Source of the DNA: Symbiodinium sp. CCMP2592
Taxonomy: Eukaryota; Sar; Dinophyceae; Suessiales; Symbiodiniaceae
Assembly: GCA_905221615.1 (NCBI GenBank)
Contig: CAJNDT010006001.1
Coordinates: 124,001 to 188,000 of the forward strand
Reading direction: 5' to 3'
DNA: 64,000 nucleotides
This document shows, piece by piece, positions 49,130-62,644 of this stretch. Every line of letters begins with the position of its first letter. The first letter of the stretch is position 1. The notes under the pieces were generated by a model. That model saw only the letters and a list, made by a program, of their open reading frames with translations, was not told where the DNA came from and ran no database searches. Made by a program: the position numbers and the translations under genes.

Positions 49130-49971
49130 ATGCCTGCCGCAGGTGGTGCTTCAATCACTCAAAAATACACGGATGTGTAAGCCGACGCCTCAGTCGTACA
49201 GTGGAGGGCAGTGAAGTGAACGGAGCGAAGCGCCGTTGAGCTGTGAGGTTTGCAGAGACCGGGCGTTGTCGCCGAGGGCAAGCATGCAACTTCGCCCACT
49301 CCGAAGCAGACCTTCGTCCCCAGCCGGATTTGTACAGCACGCGGCTATGTGCGCAGTTCAGCGCCGGTGGCTGCCGATATGGCCGACGCTGTAGGTTTGC
49401 TCACGGAGAGGCTGAGCTGCGGCCTGTCATCAACGAGGTCCCAGAAGGCCAAAACCAAAAGGGCCGCAGCAGAGGCCGTCAGAGCCAGGGCTACCAAGCC
49501 AATGCTGCTCCGGTTCTTGACGACTTGAGAGAAATGAGACCAGGAGCAGTGAGGCAAGGGCCCAACCTGGGCCCTTGTCAAGGCCACCTCCAAGGACCAG
49601 CCGGCTGGCCCGAAGTGGTTCAGGAAGTGCCCCAGCTCGCGCCTCCAGCGATGCTCGCATCGAGATCACAGACAGACATTCCCATGTTTGTGGGTGAGGA
49701 CTGGACGCGAAGAAGGCCGCCGCGGGCCCCCAGACTGGCCACGGACACAACTTACAACGCTCAGCCTTCGATTTCTGAGCTGCACCCGGCCGTGTACCCT
49801 TTCGCACGGGCCACGACAGAGGGAGTCCGAGTCCCTGCGGATCGCGGCGATTCTCGTCTTCCCGAACTCGCCGCACGTCTCGCAGCTCATGGACTTCCGG
49901 GCAGCCCCGGAAAGGGACAGCACGCGGACCGCCTCTTCCTGGACGACCCGGTCGCTTGGCCTTTCCTTGCT
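49130..49971 (+). CDS. CCCH-type zinc-finger protein (two tandem C-x7-C-x5-C-x3-H fingers)
   Basis: Probable RNA-binding protein. The first finger spans a 67-nt intron: the exon ending ...LKNTRMCK at 49180 (GC donor at 49181) joins at 49248 to give MCKFAETGRCRRGQACNFAH. This fits C-x7-C-x5-C-x3-H. The second finger, LCAQFSAGGCRYGRRCRFAH, begins near 49348 after a linker (SEADLRPQPDLYSTR). A Gly/Arg/Pro-rich tail continues to FLA near 49971, where GTATGTATG gives a GT donor leading into (TA)n. The next intron contains the 8.6-kb LINE. A possible terminal exon lies at about 59020-59158. The upstream exon boundary (near 49130-49143) and the initiator Met are uncertain. Confidence 0.68.
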
Positions 49972-50158
49972 GTATGTATGTATATATATATATATATATA
50001 TATATCTATATATATATATATCTATATATATATATATATATATATACGTATATACGTATACGTAATATATACATATATGGAGTCTGTTTATATGTAAGTA
50101 TATAGGTATGTATGTATGTATGTGTGTATGTGTGTATGCATGTGTGTAATGTGCGTGT
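49972..50158. repeat. (TA)n and TATG/TGTG microsatellite flanking the LINE (5' side)
   Basis: About 90 bp of TA dinucleotides, then GTATGTATGTATGTGTGTATG. It continues on the other side of the LINE at 58740-58960, so it was one tract before insertion. Confidence 0.85.
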
Positions 50159-50229
50159 AAGCATCTCGGCTTAGATGTGAGCGACTGAGACCAAGGGAGG
50201 TCTCGACAGGTAGAAGTAGCTGTGGCTGC

Positions 50230-51009
50230 ATGCAGCCATGGACAAAGATAAGATGGTTGAGGTGGCGGTCCATGGCAGCAACAAAATCCCGCGACTGCCT
50301 GCAAGACTGCTATACAGTGATAGGATTGGCAATTATGTGCGGTATGTGGTGCTGGGCGCTCTTGCACAGCAGTGGAGACGACTCTCACTCACGGCACTGC
50401 GCCACAAGCAACACCGCCTGGACATTCAGTGGAGGTATGCTGGGGCGTTTCAGGTATGGCATGAGGGATGGACCCTCCTTAATGGAGCAGGTAAACTACT
50501 GCTACTTGAGCGCACCCTGCACTTCGATAAACAGTTTGCCCTGGCTTTACTGCACTGTGTTTATCTTTGCCAAGATCCTGACCTGCAGACTTTGGATTGA
50601 AGCCACCCGACAAGGTCGGGTCAGCCCAATGCGAGATCTCAGGAGAACCCTGCGAGGAGCCTTCAGGCTACAGACGAGTGGCTGGACTGGACGCCTGCCG
50701 GGAACCGAGCAGGCACTCAGATTGACCATGTTTCCAACAATTAGTCTGTGCCTGTGTGCTGGGATTGGGATCTACGTGATGGGCATGTTTGTAACACAGG
50801 CGGCCTTGACTCACACGGCCCCTCCTTCGATGCGAATCCAGTGCCCCTGCAAATCATGGCATGCATGTCTGCAGTGCTTTTGTCAGACAATGGGGATTCT
50901 GAGAGCTGGCCTGCAGAGGGAACTTGCCAAGCATATCCCATGTTACAGCTCGTTGGCTCATAGTTGGGGGGCCCATCAGGCCCACAAGGCCTCAACAGAG
51001 GCATCAACC
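50230..51009 (+). other. LINE 5' region with competing open frames
   Basis: Two frames are open. Frame starting 50238 (MDKDKMVEVAVHGSNKIPRL) stops at 50600 and looks protein-like; the frame continuous with ORF1 is Trp/Cys-rich and less natural. Either a small 5' ORF or a 5' UTR precedes the ATG at 51010. Confidence 0.35.
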
Positions 51010-54000
51010 ATGGCTGACTCCTCAGAAGAGATGGAGGAGGTCTGGGTGGAGTGCCCTTCTATGCCCCCGCGACCGCCAAGCCAGGCGCTGGCAGGACCGC
51101 CGCCTCCTCGACCCATCCAGATGGAGCAAGCCTTCGTGCACAGAGTGGCAAGGGCAGTGGCGAGAGAGCTTCCGGGATTCGTTGGGCCGATAATCTGCTA
51201 TGCACCGTGGGATCGCGCGACCTTGACGTCACTCAGAGTGACCCTGGAACCCATGAGAAGCTCCGACCATGGACACCCGAATGTCCTGCGGTGGGGTGCC
51301 AATGGCCCTCGCGAAGACGAGGGTGGTGCAACGGAGGGACCTGCAGCTGAAGACAGGCAGCTGTCTTACATGCTGTCGGCTGCCATTGCAGACACACTTC
51401 TGCGCCGAGGACACCCCACTGAGGTGATCCTCACGCGGCTGGACTCTGACATCGTGGCACCGGACACCAGGGTCCCCATGCTCACGGCCAACATCAGAAG
51501 GATGGCAGCCAATGAGACAGGCGACGAGCTGGCCCTGTGGACAGGAAGCCCTACGGATGATGACACGGGAAACCCCACCGTCATTGGGGAAGCCTTGAAC
51601 CGCAGCCGGTACGCGGGGGGTGGTGGACTCATCCCGCGGGAACATGCGGAGGAGATCACTGCGGAGCTCTGGGCGGATGGCACGCTGGCGGAGCTACTGG
51701 GCGACGAGGCCGAGGACACTGGCTCCACAGGAACGATGATGGCATCGGGCTCAAGCGAACCCTCTACGGCCAGGCCCAGCACCGGGAACTCTGGACCCAG
51801 GCGTGGGAGAAGGGCAAATGCTGATGATGATACGGCGCCTCCTCCGACACCGAAGCCGAAGGCGAACCGCAAGTCGCAGCCTCATTTGCAACGGAGTGTG
51901 ACCAACCTTAGGCAGCATAAGCTATACCACATTGGAACCCCACACAGATCCATCCTCGAACATCCAGCCGTCTCAGGCGCCGACACGAGGACAGTACGTA
52001 ATCTGAAGGGGCCATGCTCTAGGGAGCTTTTCAGGACTATTGGCCGAGGGCGTTGCACAGGGCAAATGGGCCTCGGTCGAAAGTACCTCCAGGATAGCCT
52101 GCCTCTTGAAAGCCTACTGATGACCTTGGGCGACAAAATAAAGAGTGGAGCGGTTCTGCTGAAGAGCCGGTGCATGTACCTGGTACACACTCCAGCAGTG
52201 GGGATTGTCCAATGGCCTGGGAGGTACAGTACCACGACTCTCTGGAAGAACTTGGCACGGGCCTCATTGTCTACCTGCCTGGTGGCACTATGCTTTTTGC
52301 TTGTGTACCACCTGATGAGCCAGGTCTGCCGCATCCTGCTTCTTGCCTACCTGCAGGGTGACCAGCTCAGACCTGACACAGTGATCCTGTCATCCTTCCT
52401 CCTTGTGACTGCGTGTAAGTGCAGACACCTGTTGCACCACAATATGGAGACGTGCCCTCCGAGGTGCACCAACAGAGCTACACTGCCTGCCGTATGCCTC
52501 CCACACGGTCGTATTCTCAGTTCATCTTTGAGCCGCCCAGGTCCCAAGTCCTGGGGTCGTTGCATAAGAGGGAACACAATCTCGCTACGAGTCTCTACTT
52601 TCTTGTTCTACATCATGATCCATACCACAAAGGCCATGCATGCAACGACAGATGCGAGGGTTTGGTTCCCAGAGCACCACTGGAACCAAGAAGCCACATC
52701 TCAGGTCATGACTGACCACAATTGGGCGAAGCATGGTGTTAGCCGCCACTCAGCCCAGGTTCACCCCCCAGGAGTGATTCGGAAGAGAGCGCTCCGCAGA
52801 GCGTACCACAGAGCGACACGGAACCCCTCGGGGCTAACATGGTACCGAGGGCAACAAATGCACTTCAGCCAGCTCTCCTCAGGTGACCCCGGAATGCTCC
52901 CAAGGAGCAAGACGAGGCCCGTCCCCAATAGCAGGGCTCATCGACGACTCAGAGTTATGACTTGGAACACGGGAGGACTCAGCACCACCAAGTACGCTGA
53001 GATCTTGGAATGGCTCGCTGAAGAGACGGACAAAGGCCACCCGGTGGATGTACTGTTCTTACAGGAAACATGCTGGAAACAGGACATGGAGTATGTGACC
53101 ACGCCAACGAACCACAGCCACATCAGCTACCACGTGATCCACTCAGCAGGGCCAGACCGGACTGGGATAATGTGTCTGCTTAGGAAGGGCATGATCCCTG
53201 ACTCGGAAATCCGCCATGTCAGCTGCCTACCAGGTCGGATGCTACACGTGCGGTTGTACTTTGAGGCACCGTTGGACATCCTGGGAATATATCAGTACTC
53301 ATGGAACCCGAGCAAGGTATCCCTTGAGGGCCACAAAGTGACGGCCTTGATCAAGCAACGGCAAAAGGTCTGGAAGCTGACGGAACAATGGCTCCGGACC
53401 GTGCCAAAAAGGCACGGATGTCTCATTGCAGGGGACCTAAACACTCCGGCAATCGAAGAACCCGGCATATGTGGGCCAGGTGTGGTGACACAACAAGTCC
53501 AGCAGAAGGACCAGGAAGCGTTCCAGGACATCCTCCGACTTCATCGCTGCTGCTTGCTGAACACCTGGACGGGTACAGGACTGATGCAGCGAACCTTCAT
53601 CCCCCCGGGTGAGCAGGGTGCTCAGACTGGCACACAGATTGATTTTGTGATCGCCAGGGATGATCTTGCTGATGCTGCAGCCAGGAGAGCCTGCCCCATT
53701 TCGACACCGTTCGAACCCTGCAGTGGTTGCCGACATCGACCAGTCCACGCTTCGATCCCCATGCCCAGGCTGCCCACTAAGCCCAAAGACACCCACATTC
53801 GGCAAAGACCTGCTCAGGTTCAGAAGGCGATGGCTGACCTTCAGAAAAAGGACCACTACCTCCAGCTTGTGGCCCCAGCCTTGGAGATGTGTGCGCCCAC
53901 GGACAGCCTCGACCAGATCCTGCAACAAGGATGGGCCCAGGCCCAACAGAAGGGACATGGCCCCTCGGAGGATGGTGGCCTGGACTCAGCGACACAGACT

Positions 54001-54774
54001 CAGCAGATAATTGTCCGTGACACGATCAGCTCAATGTGGCGGATCCGAGCCGAGCTACGAGCCCTTGCAGGTCACCCAAGAGATCCGGAGGACGTCCCCC
54101 CCCTGGGCACGCTGTGGAAGGCGTGGGCGACTACGGCAAAGCTCCAGGCTGTCACTCGCAACCTTCGTAAAGAATGCAGGAGAAGAAAGACCCTACGTAT
54201 CCTGGAGGCAGTGCAAGCGGATAATATCCATCAAGCTGCGAAGAAGTTTGCCCCCAAGCAGGCGAGGCGACGACTACAACTTCGATCTGAGGAAGGTCGC
54301 ATCCAGTCTCGGGAGGCGGAATTCAAGCAAATCAAAGACTACTTCATGTCTCTATTTTCGGGCCCACCGTGCACAGTCATCATGCTACCAGAGGACGTGT
54401 GCTTCACGATCGAGGAAGTCCATCGAGCCCTTGGCCGTCTCGCGGCGGGTAAGGCCATGCCCACCACAAGTGCTCACGCAGTGTTGTGGAAAACTGCGAT
54501 GATTCAGGTCGTACCAGCCCTGCAGCAGCAGATCAACTACTACCTGACCAAAGGCACCAGCACCCTGCCGGCCGGCTTTAACGTATCTGAGCTCATCCTC
54601 CTCCCAAAGCCGGGTAAGAATCTGTGCTCCCCTGACCAACTACGGCCAATCAACCTGCTCTCGCTACAGGCCAAAGTTCTAGGAGCGATGATCGCGGCCA
54701 GACTGCAGCCCTATGCGGTGAACTACCTTTTCAGGCTGTGCCTCAGTTTGCGTATGTTGGGGGCAGGTCTCTAA
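51010..54774 (+). CDS. LINE ORF: acidic N-terminus, APE-like endonuclease, start of reverse transcriptase
   Basis: The frame is open from 50230 and I prefer the ATG at 51010 (MADSSEEMEEVWVECP, in a CCATGG context). The N-terminal 300 residues are acidic and Pro/Ser-rich. The endonuclease runs from RVMTWNTGGLS (52951) through LFLQETCW, GDLNTP and TQIDFVIA to RHRPVHASI (about 53731). The last motif has Arg where Asp is usual before His. Coiled, basic sequence follows, then the RT fingers (ALGRLAAGKAM, LILLPKPGKN at about 54592, LRPINLLSLQAK). The frame ends at TAA 54772-54774 just after the RT sequence shifts to the next frame. Between about 51960 and 52890 another frame looks more protein-like, so this part may be frame-damaged. 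Confidence 0.72.
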   Translation: MADSSEEMEEVWVECPSMPPRPPSQALAGPPPPRPIQMEQAFVHRVARAVARELPGFVGPIICYAPWDRATLTSLRVTLEPMRSSDHGHPNVLRWGANGPREDEGGATEGPAAEDRQLSYMLSAAIADTLLRRGHPTEVILTRLDSDIVAPDTRVPMLTANIRRMAANETGDELALWTGSPTDDDTGNPTVIGEALNRSRYAGGGGLIPREHAEEITAELWADGTLAELLGDEAEDTGSTGTMMASGSSEPSTARPSTGNSGPRRGRRANADDDTAPPPTPKPKANRKSQPHLQRSVTNLRQHKLYHIGTPHRSILEHPAVSGADTRTVRNLKGPCSRELFRTIGRGRCTGQMGLGRKYLQDSLPLESLLMTLGDKIKSGAVLLKSRCMYLVHTPAVGIVQWPGRYSTTTLWKNLARASLSTCLVALCFLLVYHLMSQVCRILLLAYLQGDQLRPDTVILSSFLLVTACKCRHLLHHNMETCPPRCTNRATLPAVCLPHGRILSSSLSRPGPKSWGRCIRGNTISLRVSTFLFYIMIHTTKAMHATTDARVWFPEHHWNQEATSQVMTDHNWAKHGVSRHSAQVHPPGVIRKRALRRAYHRATRNPSGLTWYRGQQMHFSQLSSGDPGMLPRSKTRPVPNSRAHRRLRVMTWNTGGLSTTKYAEILEWLAEETDKGHPVDVLFLQETCWKQDMEYVTTPTNHSHISYHVIHSAGPDRTGIMCLLRKGMIPDSEIRHVSCLPGRMLHVRLYFEAPLDILGIYQYSWNPSKVSLEGHKVTALIKQRQKVWKLTEQWLRTVPKRHGCLIAGDLNTPAIEEPGICGPGVVTQQVQQKDQEAFQDILRLHRCCLLNTWTGTGLMQRTFIPPGEQGAQTGTQIDFVIARDDLADAAARRACPISTPFEPCSGCRHRPVHASIPMPRLPTKPKDTHIRQRPAQVQKAMADLQKKDHYLQLVAPALEMCAPTDSLDQILQQGWAQAQQKGHGPSEDGGLDSATQTQQIIVRDTISSMWRIRAELRALAGHPRDPEDVPPLGTLWKAWATTAKLQAVTRNLRKECRRRKTLRILEAVQADNIHQAAKKFAPKQARRRLQLRSEEGRIQSREAEFKQIKDYFMSLFSGPPCTVIMLPEDVCFTIEEVHRALGRLAAGKAMPTTSAHAVLWKTAMIQVVPALQQQINYYLTKGTSTLPAGFNVSELILLPKPGKNLCSPDQLRPINLLSLQAKVLGAMIAARLQPYAVNYLFRLCLSLRMLGAGL
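54726..54738 (+). other. Frameshift site in the LINE reverse transcriptase (CCTTTTCAG)
   Basis: Upstream coding uses one frame (…RLQPYAVNYLF) and downstream coding the -1 frame (QAVPQFAYVGG). Slipping back one base on TTTTC, or restoring one T, joins them into a normal RT. It is either a 1-nt deletion, a programmed -1 site with Phe-tRNA slippage, or an assembly error. Confidence 0.75.
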
Positions 54775-56652
54775 GTATGGCGCTTGAGCGCGTGGCGAGC
54801 CACTGCGCAGTGGTGCGAAAGCTGCTGGGAGATCAGGCGACCAACCTCCACGCCAGACGGGCTGGGAGACGAGCAGCACAGGTGTGTGGGGGAGTGCACC
54901 TCTCGCTTGATATCTCCAAAGCGTATGACAGGGTGCCGTGGAGCGACTTAGTCCTTGCATTGCGTGAGGCGGAAATACCGGAGGCCCTCATCGAACTGAT
55001 CCTGCTCATTCACCAGCAGGCCCAGATCCGTGTGACACATGGCGATTGCCAAGCCCACCTATCTTTGGGCCGAGGTTTGAGACAAGGATGTGGATTGGCC
55101 CCCATCTTATGGACAATCTATTCGAGCTGGCTGCTCAGACGACTCCATAAACCGCCGCTGCTCGACATCACGTCAAGCAACACAACATATGCAGATGACT
55201 TTCATTTTGGCTGGACCATACGCACAGGCCGGGACATGGAGGACGCGTACAACTCCATGAAACATATCCTCAAAGGCCTTAGGGACCGTGGGGTACTAGT
55301 CAGCATTGAAAAGACGGTTGCCCTCATTGAGCTCCAGGGCCCGGGTGCAGCAGCCTGCCTCTCCAGATACCTGGTGGAAAGACCACAATGGAAGGGCAAG
55401 TTCCTCAAGTTCACAATTCATGGCATGCCAGAATATGTCAAAGTGGTTGCCAAACACACATACCTAGGCATGATCATCAGCTTCAAGAAGCACGACCAGG
55501 AGACGGCCAAACACCGTATGGACCTGGCCAAAGGGGCCTACTCAAGGCTGGCTGTGATCCTCAAGTGCCGCGATGTGTCGGTTAGATTTGGACTTCTTCT
55601 CTGGCAAGGCACGATCCTACCAACCTTGCTACACGGACTGGACTGCACAGGGCTTCCACCGCACGAGGCCTCACAGATGATGATCATGTACTTCAAACAA
55701 GCCAGGGCGATTGCCAACTCGTTCAGCATGTTCACCCATGAATCCCACCAGGACTTTGCCCGCCGACTGCGACTACCTGACCCCCTTCGTCGTCTTATCC
55801 AGGCTCTAGATCGACGCACTCAGGCAGACTCAAATTGCCCGGTGCTCCTTCGCCCAGGTGACGCACAACTACAATGGCGAGCCTTTGTGAGGGGCCAGAT
55901 TCTGGAAGCCAGGGCATCCTGTGACAACATAGGCAAGACTCCTCCTGGTAACCACCTGCAGCTTGTACAAGACATTCTTCCGGAACAGCACTGTTGTGAC
56001 GTATGCGGACTGGCCTATGGCACGCAGGCTGCCCTCAAACGACATGTGTTTCGACAACATATGGATGAGGAAACCCAACTCCAAACTGTGACTGAAAACC
56101 GTCGTGTCTTACGAGGGGAGGCTATGTCACATGCCAAAGACGGTATGCCACTCTGTAGACACTGCAATCATGCATTCACGACCTGGCCAGCATTCTTCTA
56201 TCACATCAATGCTAGGAGTTGCCCTGCTCTCCAAGCTCTGTTTGAAGCTGGCTCCACCGCTACGCATGCACCTGTGGAGAGCGATGCTATCATTGAGAAT
56301 CCCGAGATCATAAAACTTGCAGGCAATTGCTCGTGGAGGGACCTGGCCTTGCACCCCAATGTTCGCAACAAGCACCAGCATTGCCCAGAGTGCAACTTGT
56401 GGACAGTTAAGCATCAGTATGTCAAGAGACACATGCTTCTCAAGCATCCTGCTCAAAGGGCCCTGATTGAACGCAGTGAGGAACTCATTGTACAGAGCGA
56501 CCTGAGCATCACCAATCCTTGTCAGTACTGTGGCCTCGTCTATCAACGCAAATCTGCGCATCTTAAGGCATGCATCGGCATCTTCAGTGGGGTATACCTT
56601 CACCTTAGGATAGCCAGAGGACGCCCTCTACAAGACCTCATCATCAAAGGTG
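54738..56652 (+). CDS. LINE reverse transcriptase core and C2H2-type zinc-finger array
   Basis: Continues the RT from VPQFAYVGGRSLSMALERV: SLDISKAYDRVPW (catalytic Asp codon 54909), GLRQGCGLAP (near 55074) and YADD at 55188-55199 give the three RT active-site blocks. The thumb follows (YLGMIISFKKH). Four Cys/His fingers lie at 55989 (CDVCGLAYG...H...H), 56157 (CRHCNHAFTTW...H...C), about 56385 (CPECNLWTVKHQYVKRHMLLKH split as C-x2-C...H) and 56520 (CQYCGLVY...H...C). They probably bind nucleic acid. No stop ends this frame; it stays open to 58589 through the next ORF and into the USP region. Its own start is only the frameshift site. Confidence 0.82.
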
Positions 56653-57756
56653 ATGACCATGGAAGTGGATGCCGAGCCTGTGAGGCAGATGACGGAGGCG
56701 ACCAAGGAACTGGAGCTGCTTCGAGCGCTTGCGCCCCCGGAGGTGACCAATCAGCCAAACAGGTCAGTGAACCCCGGGACGGTGGAGGAGCCCTTGGAAA
56801 GAGCTCAGGATTCCTGGTTTGGCGAGCCTCAGCCCAAGTACCACAAGGACGGCAACAAGGGCAGCGAAGGCCGAGGCAAAGGAGGACCGGAAAAGCGAGC
56901 GAGGGATCAGGAGACCTACGACACCTCCTGGCAAAGCCAAAACTCTTGGCCAAGCCAGTGGCGGGGACAATGGGAGAACCACGCTCAGAAGGGCAAGAAC
57001 AAGGGCAAAGGCAAGGGCAAGAGCAAGAGGCAACCCTACCCCCACCACGACCCATGGAGTGGCGAAGAGATGCCGGAGGAGTGCAAGGCCATGATCAACA
57101 TGATGGCGAACATGATCCTTCGGCAGGAAGCCCAGATCTTGATACAACGGCAAGACACTGCCTTCGTGGTTTTCATGCAGACCCACATGGAGGACAGCGT
57201 GGCGAAATCCACTTACACGCTGGCGCAGAAGTGGCATGCCATGAAGGCCAAGGAACCGGAGAAGCTGTCGTCCCCGATGAGGGTGCTACTCTTCCAGCAC
57301 TTTATCAAGACGGTGATCGAGAAGGTCGACAAGATGGTGTCTACCCCCTCGGCAAGATCAACGGCGGCGTCCTTGGGTTGGATGAACGACGAGGGCACCC
57401 AGATCAACGGAGTCAAATGGGACGCGGAGAATCGAACACACACCAAGGACACCACGGTCAACCCTTTGGCAACAGAGGAAGTCCAAGCGGCCTTGGCGGA
57501 GATCCTGATCAAATGCCCCCAGGACTTGGTGGTGTCAAGATACCATGCGACAAGGAAACTGGCCTCGGACTACCAGTCACCGACATTGACGATGATGCTC
57601 GAGATTGGCAATCGGGTGGAGGCTGCGCAGGCAGTCTGGCGACGACTTCATCAACTGGAGCGCTCGGCATGCTGGGTAGCGGCAGGTACGTTCCTCCGGG
57701 CGGAGACCATGCACAGGAGTGCACTGGGACAAAAGCTGGCAGCCCTCACGAAATAA
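56653..57756 (+). CDS. LINE overlapping ORF: Lys/Gly-rich protein, unknown function
   Basis: 367 codons from ATG 56653 (second ATG 56659 in CCATGG) to TAA 57754. Acidic start (MEVDAEPVRQMTEATKELEL), then a basic low-complexity region KGKNKGKGKGKSKRQ near 56990-57033, then a helical domain (ECKAMINMMANMILRQEAQI ... LFQHFIKTVIEKVDKMVST ... VEAAQAVWRRLHQLERS). It resembles an RNA- or ribonucleoprotein-binding, Gag-like ORF, but no family is recognised. It overlaps the RT frame, which is open throughout, and the USP ORF by 88 nt. Confidence 0.65.
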   Translation: MTMEVDAEPVRQMTEATKELELLRALAPPEVTNQPNRSVNPGTVEEPLERAQDSWFGEPQPKYHKDGNKGSEGRGKGGPEKRARDQETYDTSWQSQNSWPSQWRGQWENHAQKGKNKGKGKGKSKRQPYPHHDPWSGEEMPEECKAMINMMANMILRQEAQILIQRQDTAFVVFMQTHMEDSVAKSTYTLAQKWHAMKAKEPEKLSSPMRVLLFQHFIKTVIEKVDKMVSTPSARSTAASLGWMNDEGTQINGVKWDAENRTHTKDTTVNPLATEEVQAALAEILIKCPQDLVVSRYHATRKLASDYQSPTLTMMLEIGNRVEAAQAVWRRLHQLERSACWVAAGTFLRAETMHRSALGQKLAALTK

Positions 57757-58589
57757 GGGCACTACAGCTGGGGAACCGGGGCAACTACTGCTACTCCAAT
57801 GCGGCATTGAAGTGCTTGATGTATGTTGCTGTATTTAGGGGCGGCCTTGAGACGATGTTTGATGGGGCCATGCTCAAGTTCATCCGGGGAGTGCTTGAGC
57901 AGAAGGGGACCACACACCTGTGGAGCCAACCATTTTGGATGGCTATGATGAGCAAATGGCGGGAACCTGCACGCCAACATGATTGTGCAGAATTCCTGGC
58001 ACACTTTCTGCGGGAACAGAGGTTTACTGCGGACCAAATGCTGCTGTACTGGCAAGCTCGCTCATCTCGGGCTGGTGAGCCAATGATAGTGGACGGGGGT
58101 GAGTCTGCGCCAATCCTCATCCAGCCTCCCGAAAGAGTGAGTTCGGACCATCTGTACAGTACGAGTGTGCAAGAACTTATCAATGAATGGCGAAATCAGG
58201 ATTACGCACATGCGGCCACAGTCCCGCCAGCAGTGCTCGCCATACAAGTGGGGAGATTTAGGTACCAGGCTGCTGAGGGTCACAGTGTGAAGCGCCGTTT
58301 CGCTGTTATCCCTGAACCGTGTATCAAGCTGCCATGCTTTGAGGATGGTGTTGAAACTTACGATACTGTCTTTCACCTTCGTGCAGCACTGGTACACCAG
58401 GGCCCCTCTCTCCAATGTGGCCATTATACTGTTATCTTGTTTGATGGTGTTGATAATTGCGAGTATTGGATTGCTGATGATGACATGCCGGCTTATCGGA
58501 CCTCGTATGACACTGTTGCTAATCGCTTTCAAGATATCTACATGCTTTTCTATACGAAGCTGGCGAGCCACAACGAGGTTTTGCTTTAG
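57669..58589 (+). CDS. LINE-encoded ubiquitin-specific protease (peptidase C19)-like domain
   Basis: 306 residues from ATG 57669 (same frame as the RT), stop TAG 58587-58589. All USP boxes are present in order: Cys box LGNRGNYCYSNAALKCL, with catalytic Cys codon at 57789; QHDCAEFLAHFL at 57975, the QQD-E-F box; His box LQCGHYTVILFDG, with catalytic His codon at 58422; then EYWIADDDMPAYR and the closing strand IYMLFYTK. The finger subdomain is short. Known family role: hydrolysis of ubiquitin isopeptide bonds. Here it may remove ubiquitin from the element's proteins or host factors, or process the polyprotein; this is inference. It could be translated alone or as a fusion with the RT. Confidence 0.82.
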   Translation: MLGSGRYVPPGGDHAQECTGTKAGSPHEIRALQLGNRGNYCYSNAALKCLMYVAVFRGGLETMFDGAMLKFIRGVLEQKGTTHLWSQPFWMAMMSKWREPARQHDCAEFLAHFLREQRFTADQMLLYWQARSSRAGEPMIVDGGESAPILIQPPERVSSDHLYSTSVQELINEWRNQDYAHAATVPPAVLAIQVGRFRYQAAEGHSVKRRFAVIPEPCIKLPCFEDGVETYDTVFHLRAALVHQGPSLQCGHYTVILFDGVDNCEYWIADDDMPAYRTSYDTVANRFQDIYMLFYTKLASHNEVLL

Positions 58590-58739
58590 GGCACCAGTGC
58601 CGAAAACCTCCTCTCCTGGGAGGGTTCAACACAGATGTGCAATGCACAGCGCCAACAGAGCGCCGGGCTTCGAAGCTTGTCTGCATTTTCGTTCGCTGAA
58701 GCCGGATCTTCTGCAACGCCGAAAGTGAAAAAGTGAAAA

Positions 58740-58960
58740 GTAATGTGCGTGTCGTGTGTAATGTGTGTAATGTGTGTATGTATGTGTGTATGTATATGTA
58801 TCTGTATATGTGTATGCATATGCATAAGCATATGTGTATGTACTGTATATGTCTATGTCTAGGTATAAGTATATGTGCAGATGTGTAGATGTGTAGATGT
58901 GTATATGTGTATGTATATATATATATATATGTATATGTATCTATGTACAATACATGTATA
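58740..58960. repeat. TGTG/TATG/TA microsatellite flanking the LINE (3' side)
   Basis: Continues the tract that the LINE interrupted; starts with the target-duplication copy GTAATGTGCGTGT. Confidence 0.85.
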
Positions 58961-61640: not shown

Positions 61641-61754
61641 CCACTTTTGAAGTCTTGGAGCAGATGGAGAGTTGCAACGCACTGAGGTGAGCAATGCCCG
61701 TGAAGACCTCTTGTGCCCAGGGTGCTTTCAGCCAAGTGCAAGGCATCTGGTCGT

Positions 61755-62550
<796 letters not shown>

Positions 62551-62644
62551 CTGAAGGCCGGTTTCCAAGGCAGGACACTTCCGGACACAATGCCCGGGTT
62601 GTATGCTGATGTTGAGAGTGATACGGTTGAATTTAGAAATCCTG

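What the first reader, a model, noticed from the sequence alone, without database searches (positions are those of the whole stretch)
57669..58589. A LINE retrotransposon that encodes a ubiquitin-specific protease-like domain
The 3' end of the element carries the Cys box (GNRGNYCYSN), the QHDCAEF box, the His box (CGHYTV) and the closing YMLFYTK strand, in order, in the same frame as the reverse transcriptase. The target-site duplications lie outside it, so it is inside the element. Ulp1-type cysteine proteases are known in NeSL-type elements, but I know of no USP in a LINE. A deubiquitinase could stabilise the element's RNP against proteasomal control or process its polyprotein.
Basis: partly seen in the sequence, partly recalled or inferred. 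Interest (0 to 1): 0.9.

Follow-up and report, generated by a model that had tools for sequence, protein, structure and literature searches.

The report
Retrotransposon clade carrying a deubiquitinase domain
A whole family of LINE jumping genes, in what looks like a dinoflagellate genome, carries its own ubiquitin-removing enzyme domain plus protein genes packed in overlapping reading frames, suggesting that these elements manipulate their host's protein-tagging system much as some viruses do.

Summary
Confirmed and extended. Window 57768-58553 is a ubiquitin-specific protease domain (Pfam UCH, E=1.1e-15) with an intact Cys-His-Asp triad. It lies inside a full-length APE-type LINE (50159-58739) bounded by a perfect 13-bp target-site duplication. 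It is not a captured host fragment. The 28 genomic copies compared keep the catalytic residues at 22-100% USP identity; USP dN/dS is 0.11-0.18 in 5 pairs; USP divergence tracks RT (r=0.94, n=11). Of 49 RT copies at least 48% identical to one query, 44 have a listed USP downstream. Two database proteins of unstated organism combine UCH and RVT_1 likewise. 'Same frame as the RT' is right but incomplete: between zinc fingers and USP the frame is overlapped by another conserved ORF (LINK, +1). Long-frame stops are absent over LINK in 27 of 28 copies where 4-12 are expected; a small 5' ORF (alpha) is overlapped likewise. Most likely the USP ends a ~2,600-aa polyprotein and acts in trans; activity and target are inferred. 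No USP in a LINE appeared in the listings of nine literature searches. The window copy has a frameshifted RT.

The parts
50146..50158 (+). 5' target-site duplication GTAATGTGCGTGT
   Evidence: 2 exact matches in the window, 0 expected in 100 shuffles
50159..58739 (+). the whole LINE insertion (8,581 bp), ends in short GTGAAA-type repeats
   Evidence: bounded by the TSD; 3' homology with L025 stops at about 58738
50230..54774 (+). long frame A, part 1: N-terminal region, endonuclease, first part of RT; ends at 54774 because of a frameshift in this copy
   Evidence: Exo_endo_phos PF03372 E=1.3e-9 at about 52957-53451
50238..50600 (+). alpha ORF (120 aa), overlapping frame A; first ATG 8 nt after the first ATG of frame A
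   Evidence: frame A 0 stops vs 3.58 expected, P 0.006 here; the window's alpha is only weakly like the others (no tblastn hit outside L025)
53845..55877 (+). reverse transcriptase (YADD at about 55188), split by a frameshift within 54738-54774
   Evidence: RVT_1 PF00078 E=6.7e-14
55878..56597 (+). C2H2-type zinc-finger region
   Evidence: weak Pfam C2H2 matches below cut-off; conserved in copies
56650..57756 (+). LINK ORF (+1 relative to the RT-ZF and USP frame), ATG at 56653; stops just before the USP
   Evidence: dN/dS 0.04-0.13; homologues P0003-P0014
56598..57767 (+). frame A over LINK ('X' linker): open, Gly-rich, not constrained in sequence
57768..58553 (+). ubiquitin-specific protease (peptidase C19) domain
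   Evidence: PF00443 E=1.1e-15; fold
57789..57791 (+). catalytic Cys codon (with oxyanion Asn at 57774-57776)
   Evidence: invariant in 28 of 28 copies
58422..58424 (+). catalytic His codon
   Evidence: invariant in 28 of 28
58479..58481 (+). third catalytic residue, Asp codon (preceded by another Asp, kept in 27 of 28)
   Evidence: invariant in 28 of 28
58590..58739 (+). 3' UTR and short-repeat tail
   Evidence: shared with L025, and with L038 as far as that locus reaches
58740..58752 (+). 3' target-site duplication

Best explanation
This is one copy of an old, diverse clade of APE-type LINEs whose long open frame (about 2,450-2,700 aa in the intact copies examined) runs N-terminal region - endonuclease - reverse transcriptase - zinc fingers - Gly-rich linker (X) - USP. 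Two further proteins, alpha at the 5' end and LINK between zinc fingers and USP, are read from frames overlapping that long frame. Shown: the USP domain is inside the element, complete by profile and model, keeps its catalytic residues and is under purifying selection together with the RT over deep divergence; the long frame is kept free of stops over LINK and alpha although its peptide over LINK is not constrained. Inferred: the USP is made as the C-terminal domain of the polyprotein, is an active deubiquitinase, and acts in trans, most likely by removing ubiquitin from the element's own RNP proteins (or from host factors bound to it) so that the RNP escapes proteasomal loss before or during target-primed reverse transcription. 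Alpha and LINK are probably started from their own AUGs, by leaky scanning (alpha) and by an internal or trans-spliced mRNA (LINK).
For: UCH E=1.1e-15, EN and RVT_1 in the same element. TSD around everything. 9 of the first 20 loci taken from the USP match list have window-like USP and LINK; 8 of these 9 show EN-RT-ZF-LINK-USP in order, L019 only ZF-LINK-USP. 18 of 18 later loci have ZF-LINK-USP with the same frame relation (chosen mostly for long open frames; 3.2-kb loci reach only part of the RT and 4 of the 18 show no RT match). One RT-chosen copy absent from the USP lists also has LINK and USP (L047). 44 of 49 RT copies at >=48% identity have a listed USP 1.5-7 kb downstream. Catalytic residues 28 of 28. 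dN/dS USP 0.11-0.18, RT 0.03-0.09 in 5 pairs. LINK-USP distance correlation r=0.954 (n=28), RT-USP r=0.939 (n=11). LINE USPs form one clade, 97/91, apart from the Helitron-type USPs. Long frame over LINK: 0 stops in 27 of 28 copies, 3.6-11.9 expected (P 0.011 for L042, 0.004 or less for the rest), while the third frame has about as many as expected (P 0.029-0.975). Of 137 of the 138 USP matches, 105 have an open frame >=560 aa. P0001 and P0002 in a protein database.
Against: No activity, expression or protein data. The ubiquitin target is a guess. The window copy is frameshifted in RT and so probably immobile. The fold match has high rmsd (4.4 A for the best) and only one of five AF2 models exceeded pLDDT 75. 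In the 30-38% RT group only 10 of 61 have a listed USP; the USP lists are truncated, and just one of the other 51 was checked (it had a USP). Of the 5 unlinked RT copies at >=48%, one was checked (L048: LINK and a broken-off USP start). Which mRNA yields which protein is not shown. Alpha's overlap is significant in only 4 of 7 copies singly (P<0.05). dN/dS cannot tell selection for the element's spread from selection by the host.
Confidence: 0.62

Rival explanations
1. The USP is made as a separate protein, not as part of the polyprotein: ribosomes that finish LINK reinitiate just downstream, or a trans-spliced subgenomic mRNA carries the USP.
For: LINK stops 5-92 nt before, or up to 55 nt inside, the USP homology. 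In several lineages an in-frame Met lies 6-10 residues before the conserved Asn of the Cys box (L016, L017, L018, L021, L027, L028).
Against: The window copy, L025 and L022 have no such Met. It does not explain why frame A is stop-free over LINK. P0001 and P0002 are predicted as continuous proteins.
Confidence: 0.27
2. The USP serves mainly to cut the element's own polyprotein, as viral deubiquitinating proteases do.
For: It sits at the end of a very long polyprotein; [quoted passage not shown]
Against: No conserved LxGG site in 6 polyproteins (P0002 partial) plus the two halves of the window's: 0-1 per sequence, at unrelated places.
Confidence: 0.08
3. The USP acts on host chromatin or repair proteins (for example monoubiquitinated histone or PCNA) at the integration site, rather than on RNP stability.
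For: Nearest solved relatives include USP46/USP12, which act on nuclear substrates (recalled); LINK has a KRRRPE-type basic motif in many copies, like a nuclear localisation signal (recalled).
Against: Nothing here identifies a substrate; dinoflagellates have few nucleosomal histones (recalled).
Confidence: 0.15
4. A host USP gene fragment next to or captured by one LINE copy.
For: The genome has many other USPs.
Against: Linkage, co-divergence, TSD, shared 3' UTR, low dN/dS.
Confidence: 0.01
5. The domain binds or cuts a ubiquitin-like modifier other than ubiquitin.
For: Only 13-18% identity to the 50 solved USPs shown; USPL1 is a USP-family member that prefers SUMO (start of an abstract seen).
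Against: Nearest solved relatives by profile are USP7, USP46, USP12, which cut ubiquitin (recalled).
Confidence: 0.1

Closest known systems
NeSL / Utopia LINEs with Ulp1-like protease (PMC4640811, passages seen)
   Same: A LINE whose protein carries a cysteine protease of the ubiquitin/SUMO-removing kind.
   Different: Those have a C-terminal restriction-like endonuclease and an N-terminal Ulp1-like domain; here an APE-type endonuclease precedes the RT and a C-terminal USP follows zinc fingers, with overlapping ORFs.
Helitrons/Helentrons with OTU or VTD deubiquitinase domains (PMC9741609, passages seen)
   Same: A eukaryotic mobile element encoding a deubiquitinase; the authors suggest protection of proteins needed for transposition.
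   Different: Rolling-circle DNA elements, other DUB families, other architecture.
Transposase_11 joined to peptidase C19 in Trichomonas, and Ginger1 with OTU or Ulp1 (PMC2836005, passages seen)
   Same: C19 or related proteases fused to a transposase; the authors suggest that the ubiquitin pathway is used in transposition.
   Different: DNA transposons; one C19 example is mentioned in the passages, no LINE.
Symbiodinium LINEs (PMC8045281, passages seen)
   Same: Probably the same host group; LINEs make up 74-171 Mb in Symbiodinium genomes there.
   Different: The passages describe abundance and age, not domain content.
Cellular USPs (USP7, USP46/12, USP35)
   Same: Fold and catalytic boxes.
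   Different: About 270 aa, 13-18% identical to the solved ones shown, element-borne.

Membership tests
APE-type LINE (non-LTR retrotransposon) | RT of non-LTR type | tested here: met
   RVT_1 E=6.7e-14; the 10 solved matches are reverse transcriptases, those with a telling name R2 and LINE-1 ORF2p
APE-type LINE (non-LTR retrotransposon) | apurinic-like endonuclease upstream of RT | tested here: met
   Exo_endo_phos E=1.3e-9
APE-type LINE (non-LTR retrotransposon) | target-site duplication | tested here: met
   13 bp, (the window copy only)
APE-type LINE (non-LTR retrotransposon) | no long terminal repeats | not tested
   no repeat search was run
USP / peptidase C19 | significant match to the family profile | tested here: met
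   PF00443 58.3 bits, cut-off 23.9
USP / peptidase C19 | catalytic Cys, His, Asp/Asn | tested here: met
   28 of 28 copies
USP / peptidase C19 | USP fold | tested here: met
   AF2 pLDDT 80.7, Foldseek USP35 E=2.5e-16
USP / peptidase C19 | deubiquitinating activity | not testable with these tools
   needs an assay
NeSL clade | Ulp1-like protease at the N-terminus | tested here: not met
   Pfam finds only Exo_endo_phos in 50230-54771; the protease found is UCH, at the C-terminus
NeSL clade | C-terminal restriction-like endonuclease | tested here: inconclusive
   Pfam finds no endonuclease after the RT, but I did not check that it has a model for this domain; no RT tree with named clades was made

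The most novel reading that the evidence does not exclude
A LINE clade with a virus-like compact genome: a polyprotein of about 2,600 aa ending in a working deubiquitinase, with two unrelated proteins (alpha, LINK) overprinted on it, the linker frame being kept open only so that the deubiquitinase is attached to the reverse transcriptase. The clade radiated for a long time in dinoflagellates with this module intact.
Probability: 0.55. Interest if true: 0.88.

Novelty: new variant of a known kind. Interest (0 to 1): 0.8.

Why it matters
Ubiquitin-removing domains have been noted in Helitrons, Ginger1 and NeSL-type LINEs, which hints that mobile elements repeatedly use or fight the host ubiquitin system, but a USP in a LINE did not appear in the listings of nine text searches (up to 25 papers listed each, of up to 2,152 that held the terms). 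Here the link is deep, conserved and testable: the catalytic Cys can be mutated and the enzyme assayed. The kilobase-scale overlap of two coding frames in a retrotransposon, with stops removed from a frame whose peptide is otherwise free to change, gives a clean case for how overlapping genes are kept in cellular mobile elements.

Tried and rejected
Host-fragment reading: rejected (TSD, linkage, co-divergence). Chance open frame over LINK: rejected by synonymous shuffles, with the third frame as control and 600-nt windows along four intact copies as a further control (2 of 68 windows had P<0.01 in either alternative frame). In one search the long frame was held fixed instead; there LINK itself stood out only weakly (P 0.01-0.36 over the LINK windows), so the strong signal comes from holding LINK, the constrained frame, fixed. 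Frame X as a conserved protein: rejected, dN/dS above 1 in 5 of 5 pairs and at best E=4e-4 in other lineages. LxGG self-processing: not supported. LINK function: AF2 pLDDT 66.7 and no PDB match at E<=0.001; no Pfam family in the window's LINK. Origin of the LINE USP from the Helitron-type USPs: not supported, separate clades, but only one presumed host USP was in the tree, rooting is by midpoint and some branches are long. DinoSL motif in the window: 0 matches with up to 3 mismatches; the genome-wide search never got an answer, so the host as a dinoflagellate rests on LINK homologues named Symbiodinium. Open frames above about 3,000 aa may be inflated by runs of N (seen in L029). A wrong strand option left empty; redone. 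The RT group cut is coded as >=45%; its lowest member is 48%. One linked pair there (C990) is 5.4 kb apart and may be spurious.

Full report
What was checked. The finding says that a LINE at the right end of the window encodes a USP-like domain. Pfam-A gives UCH (PF00443) at 58.3 bits, E=1.1e-15 on 57669-58586, an endonuclease (PF03372, E=1.3e-9) and RVT_1 (PF00078, E=6.7e-14) in the same element. A profile of nine LINE USPs matches 102 distinct PDB sequences at E<=0.01 (60 shown), best USP7, then USP46 and USP12. The AlphaFold2 model (pLDDT 80.7, pTM 0.84; the other four models 42.6-71.0) finds USP35 at E=2.5e-16.

Element limits. GTAATGTGCGTGT occurs twice in the window, at 50146-50158 and 58740-58752, none expected. 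The insertion is 50159-58739. Homology of the window copy to L038 and L025 continues through the 3' UTR after the USP and stops at about 58738 in L025; the L038 locus ends before that point. So the USP is inside the element.

The genome. The window lies in a 1.10-Gb assembly of 5383 contigs. LINK homologues include three named Symbiodinium (P0006, P0008, P0010), so a symbiodiniacean dinoflagellate is likely; this is inference.

Copies. UCH gives 148 matches in the genome, a lower bound. I took 20 loci of about 10 kb from near the top of that list, with skips and no fixed rule. In 9 of 20 the window's USP and LINK matched; 8 of the 9 show endonuclease, RT, zinc fingers, LINK and USP in that order, and L019 only zinc fingers, LINK and USP. 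The other 11 (L009-L015, L020, L023, L024, L026) had no match to any of the window's query pieces. I scanned one ORF each of 8 of those 11: all 8 have UCH, and 2 also have a Helitron domain. I then took 18 more loci, mostly chosen because their USP frame was long, so they are biased to intact copies: 18 of 18 have zinc fingers, LINK and USP with the same frame relation; 4 of the 18 show no RT match, as 3.2-kb loci reach little of it. To look from the other side, an RT search gave 110 matches. Of 49 with at least 48% identity, 44 have a listed USP 1.5-7 kb downstream on the same strand; of 61 at 30-38%, 10 do. The USP lists are truncated, so these are lower bounds. I checked two without a listed USP: L047 (35% group, chosen partly for its long frame) has LINK and USP, and L048 (53% group) has LINK and the first ~20 residues of a USP that then breaks off. 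L048 thus looks like a damaged copy, not a lineage lacking the USP.

Selection and age. In 28 copies, the Asn, Cys, His and Asp of the active site are invariant, at USP identities of 22-100%. In five pairs of copies, dN/dS is 0.02-0.06 for EN, 0.03-0.09 for RT, 0.04-0.13 for LINK and 0.11-0.18 for USP. USP distances follow LINK (r=0.954, n=28) and RT (r=0.939, n=11). LINE USPs form one clade (97/91) with P0001 nested inside, apart from the Helitron-type USPs; some branches are long and the tool warns about them.

Overlapping frames. The zinc fingers and USP share frame A. Between them a different frame, LINK, is the constrained one: 20-23% identical between the window lineage and seven copies of other lineages, with significant matches, while frame A there (X) has dN/dS above 1 in 5 of 5 pairs. 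In 8 copies LINK has a plausible ATG of its own at about the same place (L016 has no Met there); of 9 LINK proteins read from the database, 3 begin with MF at the same place and most others with a Met nearby. Yet X is stop-free in 27 of 28 copies where synonymous shuffles of LINK give 3.6-11.9 stops; the third frame has about as many stops as expected, P 0.029-0.975. L016 has one stop. L047 is also stop-free, with 9.5 expected; there the third frame is somewhat low too, 5 against 8.6, P 0.049. Part of this set was chosen by open frame; among the 10 copies not so chosen (including the window), 9 are stop-free. Of 137 of the 138 USP matches, 105 have an open frame of at least 560 aa, long enough to include X, although runs of N may inflate some. 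At the 5' end a second ORF, alpha, is likewise overlapped: frame A has 0 stops in 7 of 7, with 1.0-4.0 expected each (P 0.001-0.31 singly), and the first ATG of frame A lies 8-32 nt upstream of the first ATG of alpha in 7 of 7. The window's alpha is at best a weak homologue of the others.

In protein databases. Two proteins have the same kind of architecture: P0001, 2445 aa, UCH+RVT_1+Exo_endo_phos, USP 40% identical to L017, and P0002, 1557 aa, UCH+RVT_1, USP 52% identical to L025. Each search gave that one protein, among 626 and 857 candidates. No organism is shown for them, and they could come from the same species as the window. A LINK profile found 12 proteins, three named Symbiodinium.

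How it probably works. The simplest reading of a stop-free but unconstrained X is a linker that must be translated to attach the USP to the RT-zinc-finger protein. An active-site triad kept over such divergence implies that catalysis matters. Without conserved LxGG sites, action in trans on ubiquitinated proteins, probably of the element's own RNP, is more likely than self-processing. None of this is shown biochemically.

Known comparisons. Passages seen: NeSL and one Utopia family with an N-terminal Ulp1-like protease (PMC4640811); Helitrons with VTD and OTU (PMC9741609); Ginger1 with OTU or Ulp1 and a Trichomonas transposase with C19 (PMC2836005); LINE abundance in Symbiodiniaceae (PMC8045281); a dinoflagellate genomics review (PMC11453091). 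None of the passages describes a USP in a LINE. Nine searches of an open-access library listed none by title or start of abstract (at most 25 papers listed each); subscription papers and Repbase were not searchable.

Noticed in passing
L010:7123-9999 (+), L013:3-2861 (-): Long ORFs with an N-terminal UCH (USP) domain followed by Helitron_like_N (E=3.3e-7 and 4.2e-8): Helitrons with a USP, a second kind of mobile element with this DUB in the same genome.
   Followed up: partly
G000 contigs C994, C1987, C2844, C1555: Repeated USP matches in long ORFs close together on one contig; on C994 and C2844 they alternate between 593-594-aa and mostly ~1830-aa open frames about 3 kb apart.
   Followed up: no
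window 50238-50600; L017:3-506; L021:96-629; L022, L027, L028, L016 (reverse strand): The alpha ORF: 120-178 aa, motif DWIPNHNKIT...YARELFARP in most (not in the window's), overlapped by the long frame; no function assigned.
   Followed up: partly
frame A N-terminal region, e.g. L017 residues 724-742, P0001 488-506, window copy residues 678-696 of ORF 50230: A strongly hydrophobic, membrane-span-like stretch about 170-235 residues before the endonuclease in 6 of 6 polyproteins examined, and a hydrophobic leader at some N-termini.
   Followed up: partly
window 49243-50097: ORF with two CCCH-like zinc-finger motifs (by eye) just upstream of the insertion, running into TA-repeats; the LINE sits in a TG/TA-rich stretch, and L025's 3' flank is similar.
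   Followed up: no
window 61672-62590: Long trinucleotide-repeat stretch giving poly-Val/Ser/Tyr/Thr ORFs.
   Followed up: no
P0004, P0005, P0007, P0013: LINK proteins predicted on contigs of only 924-1665 bases, which might be transcript assemblies carrying LINK alone; source type not known.
   Followed up: no
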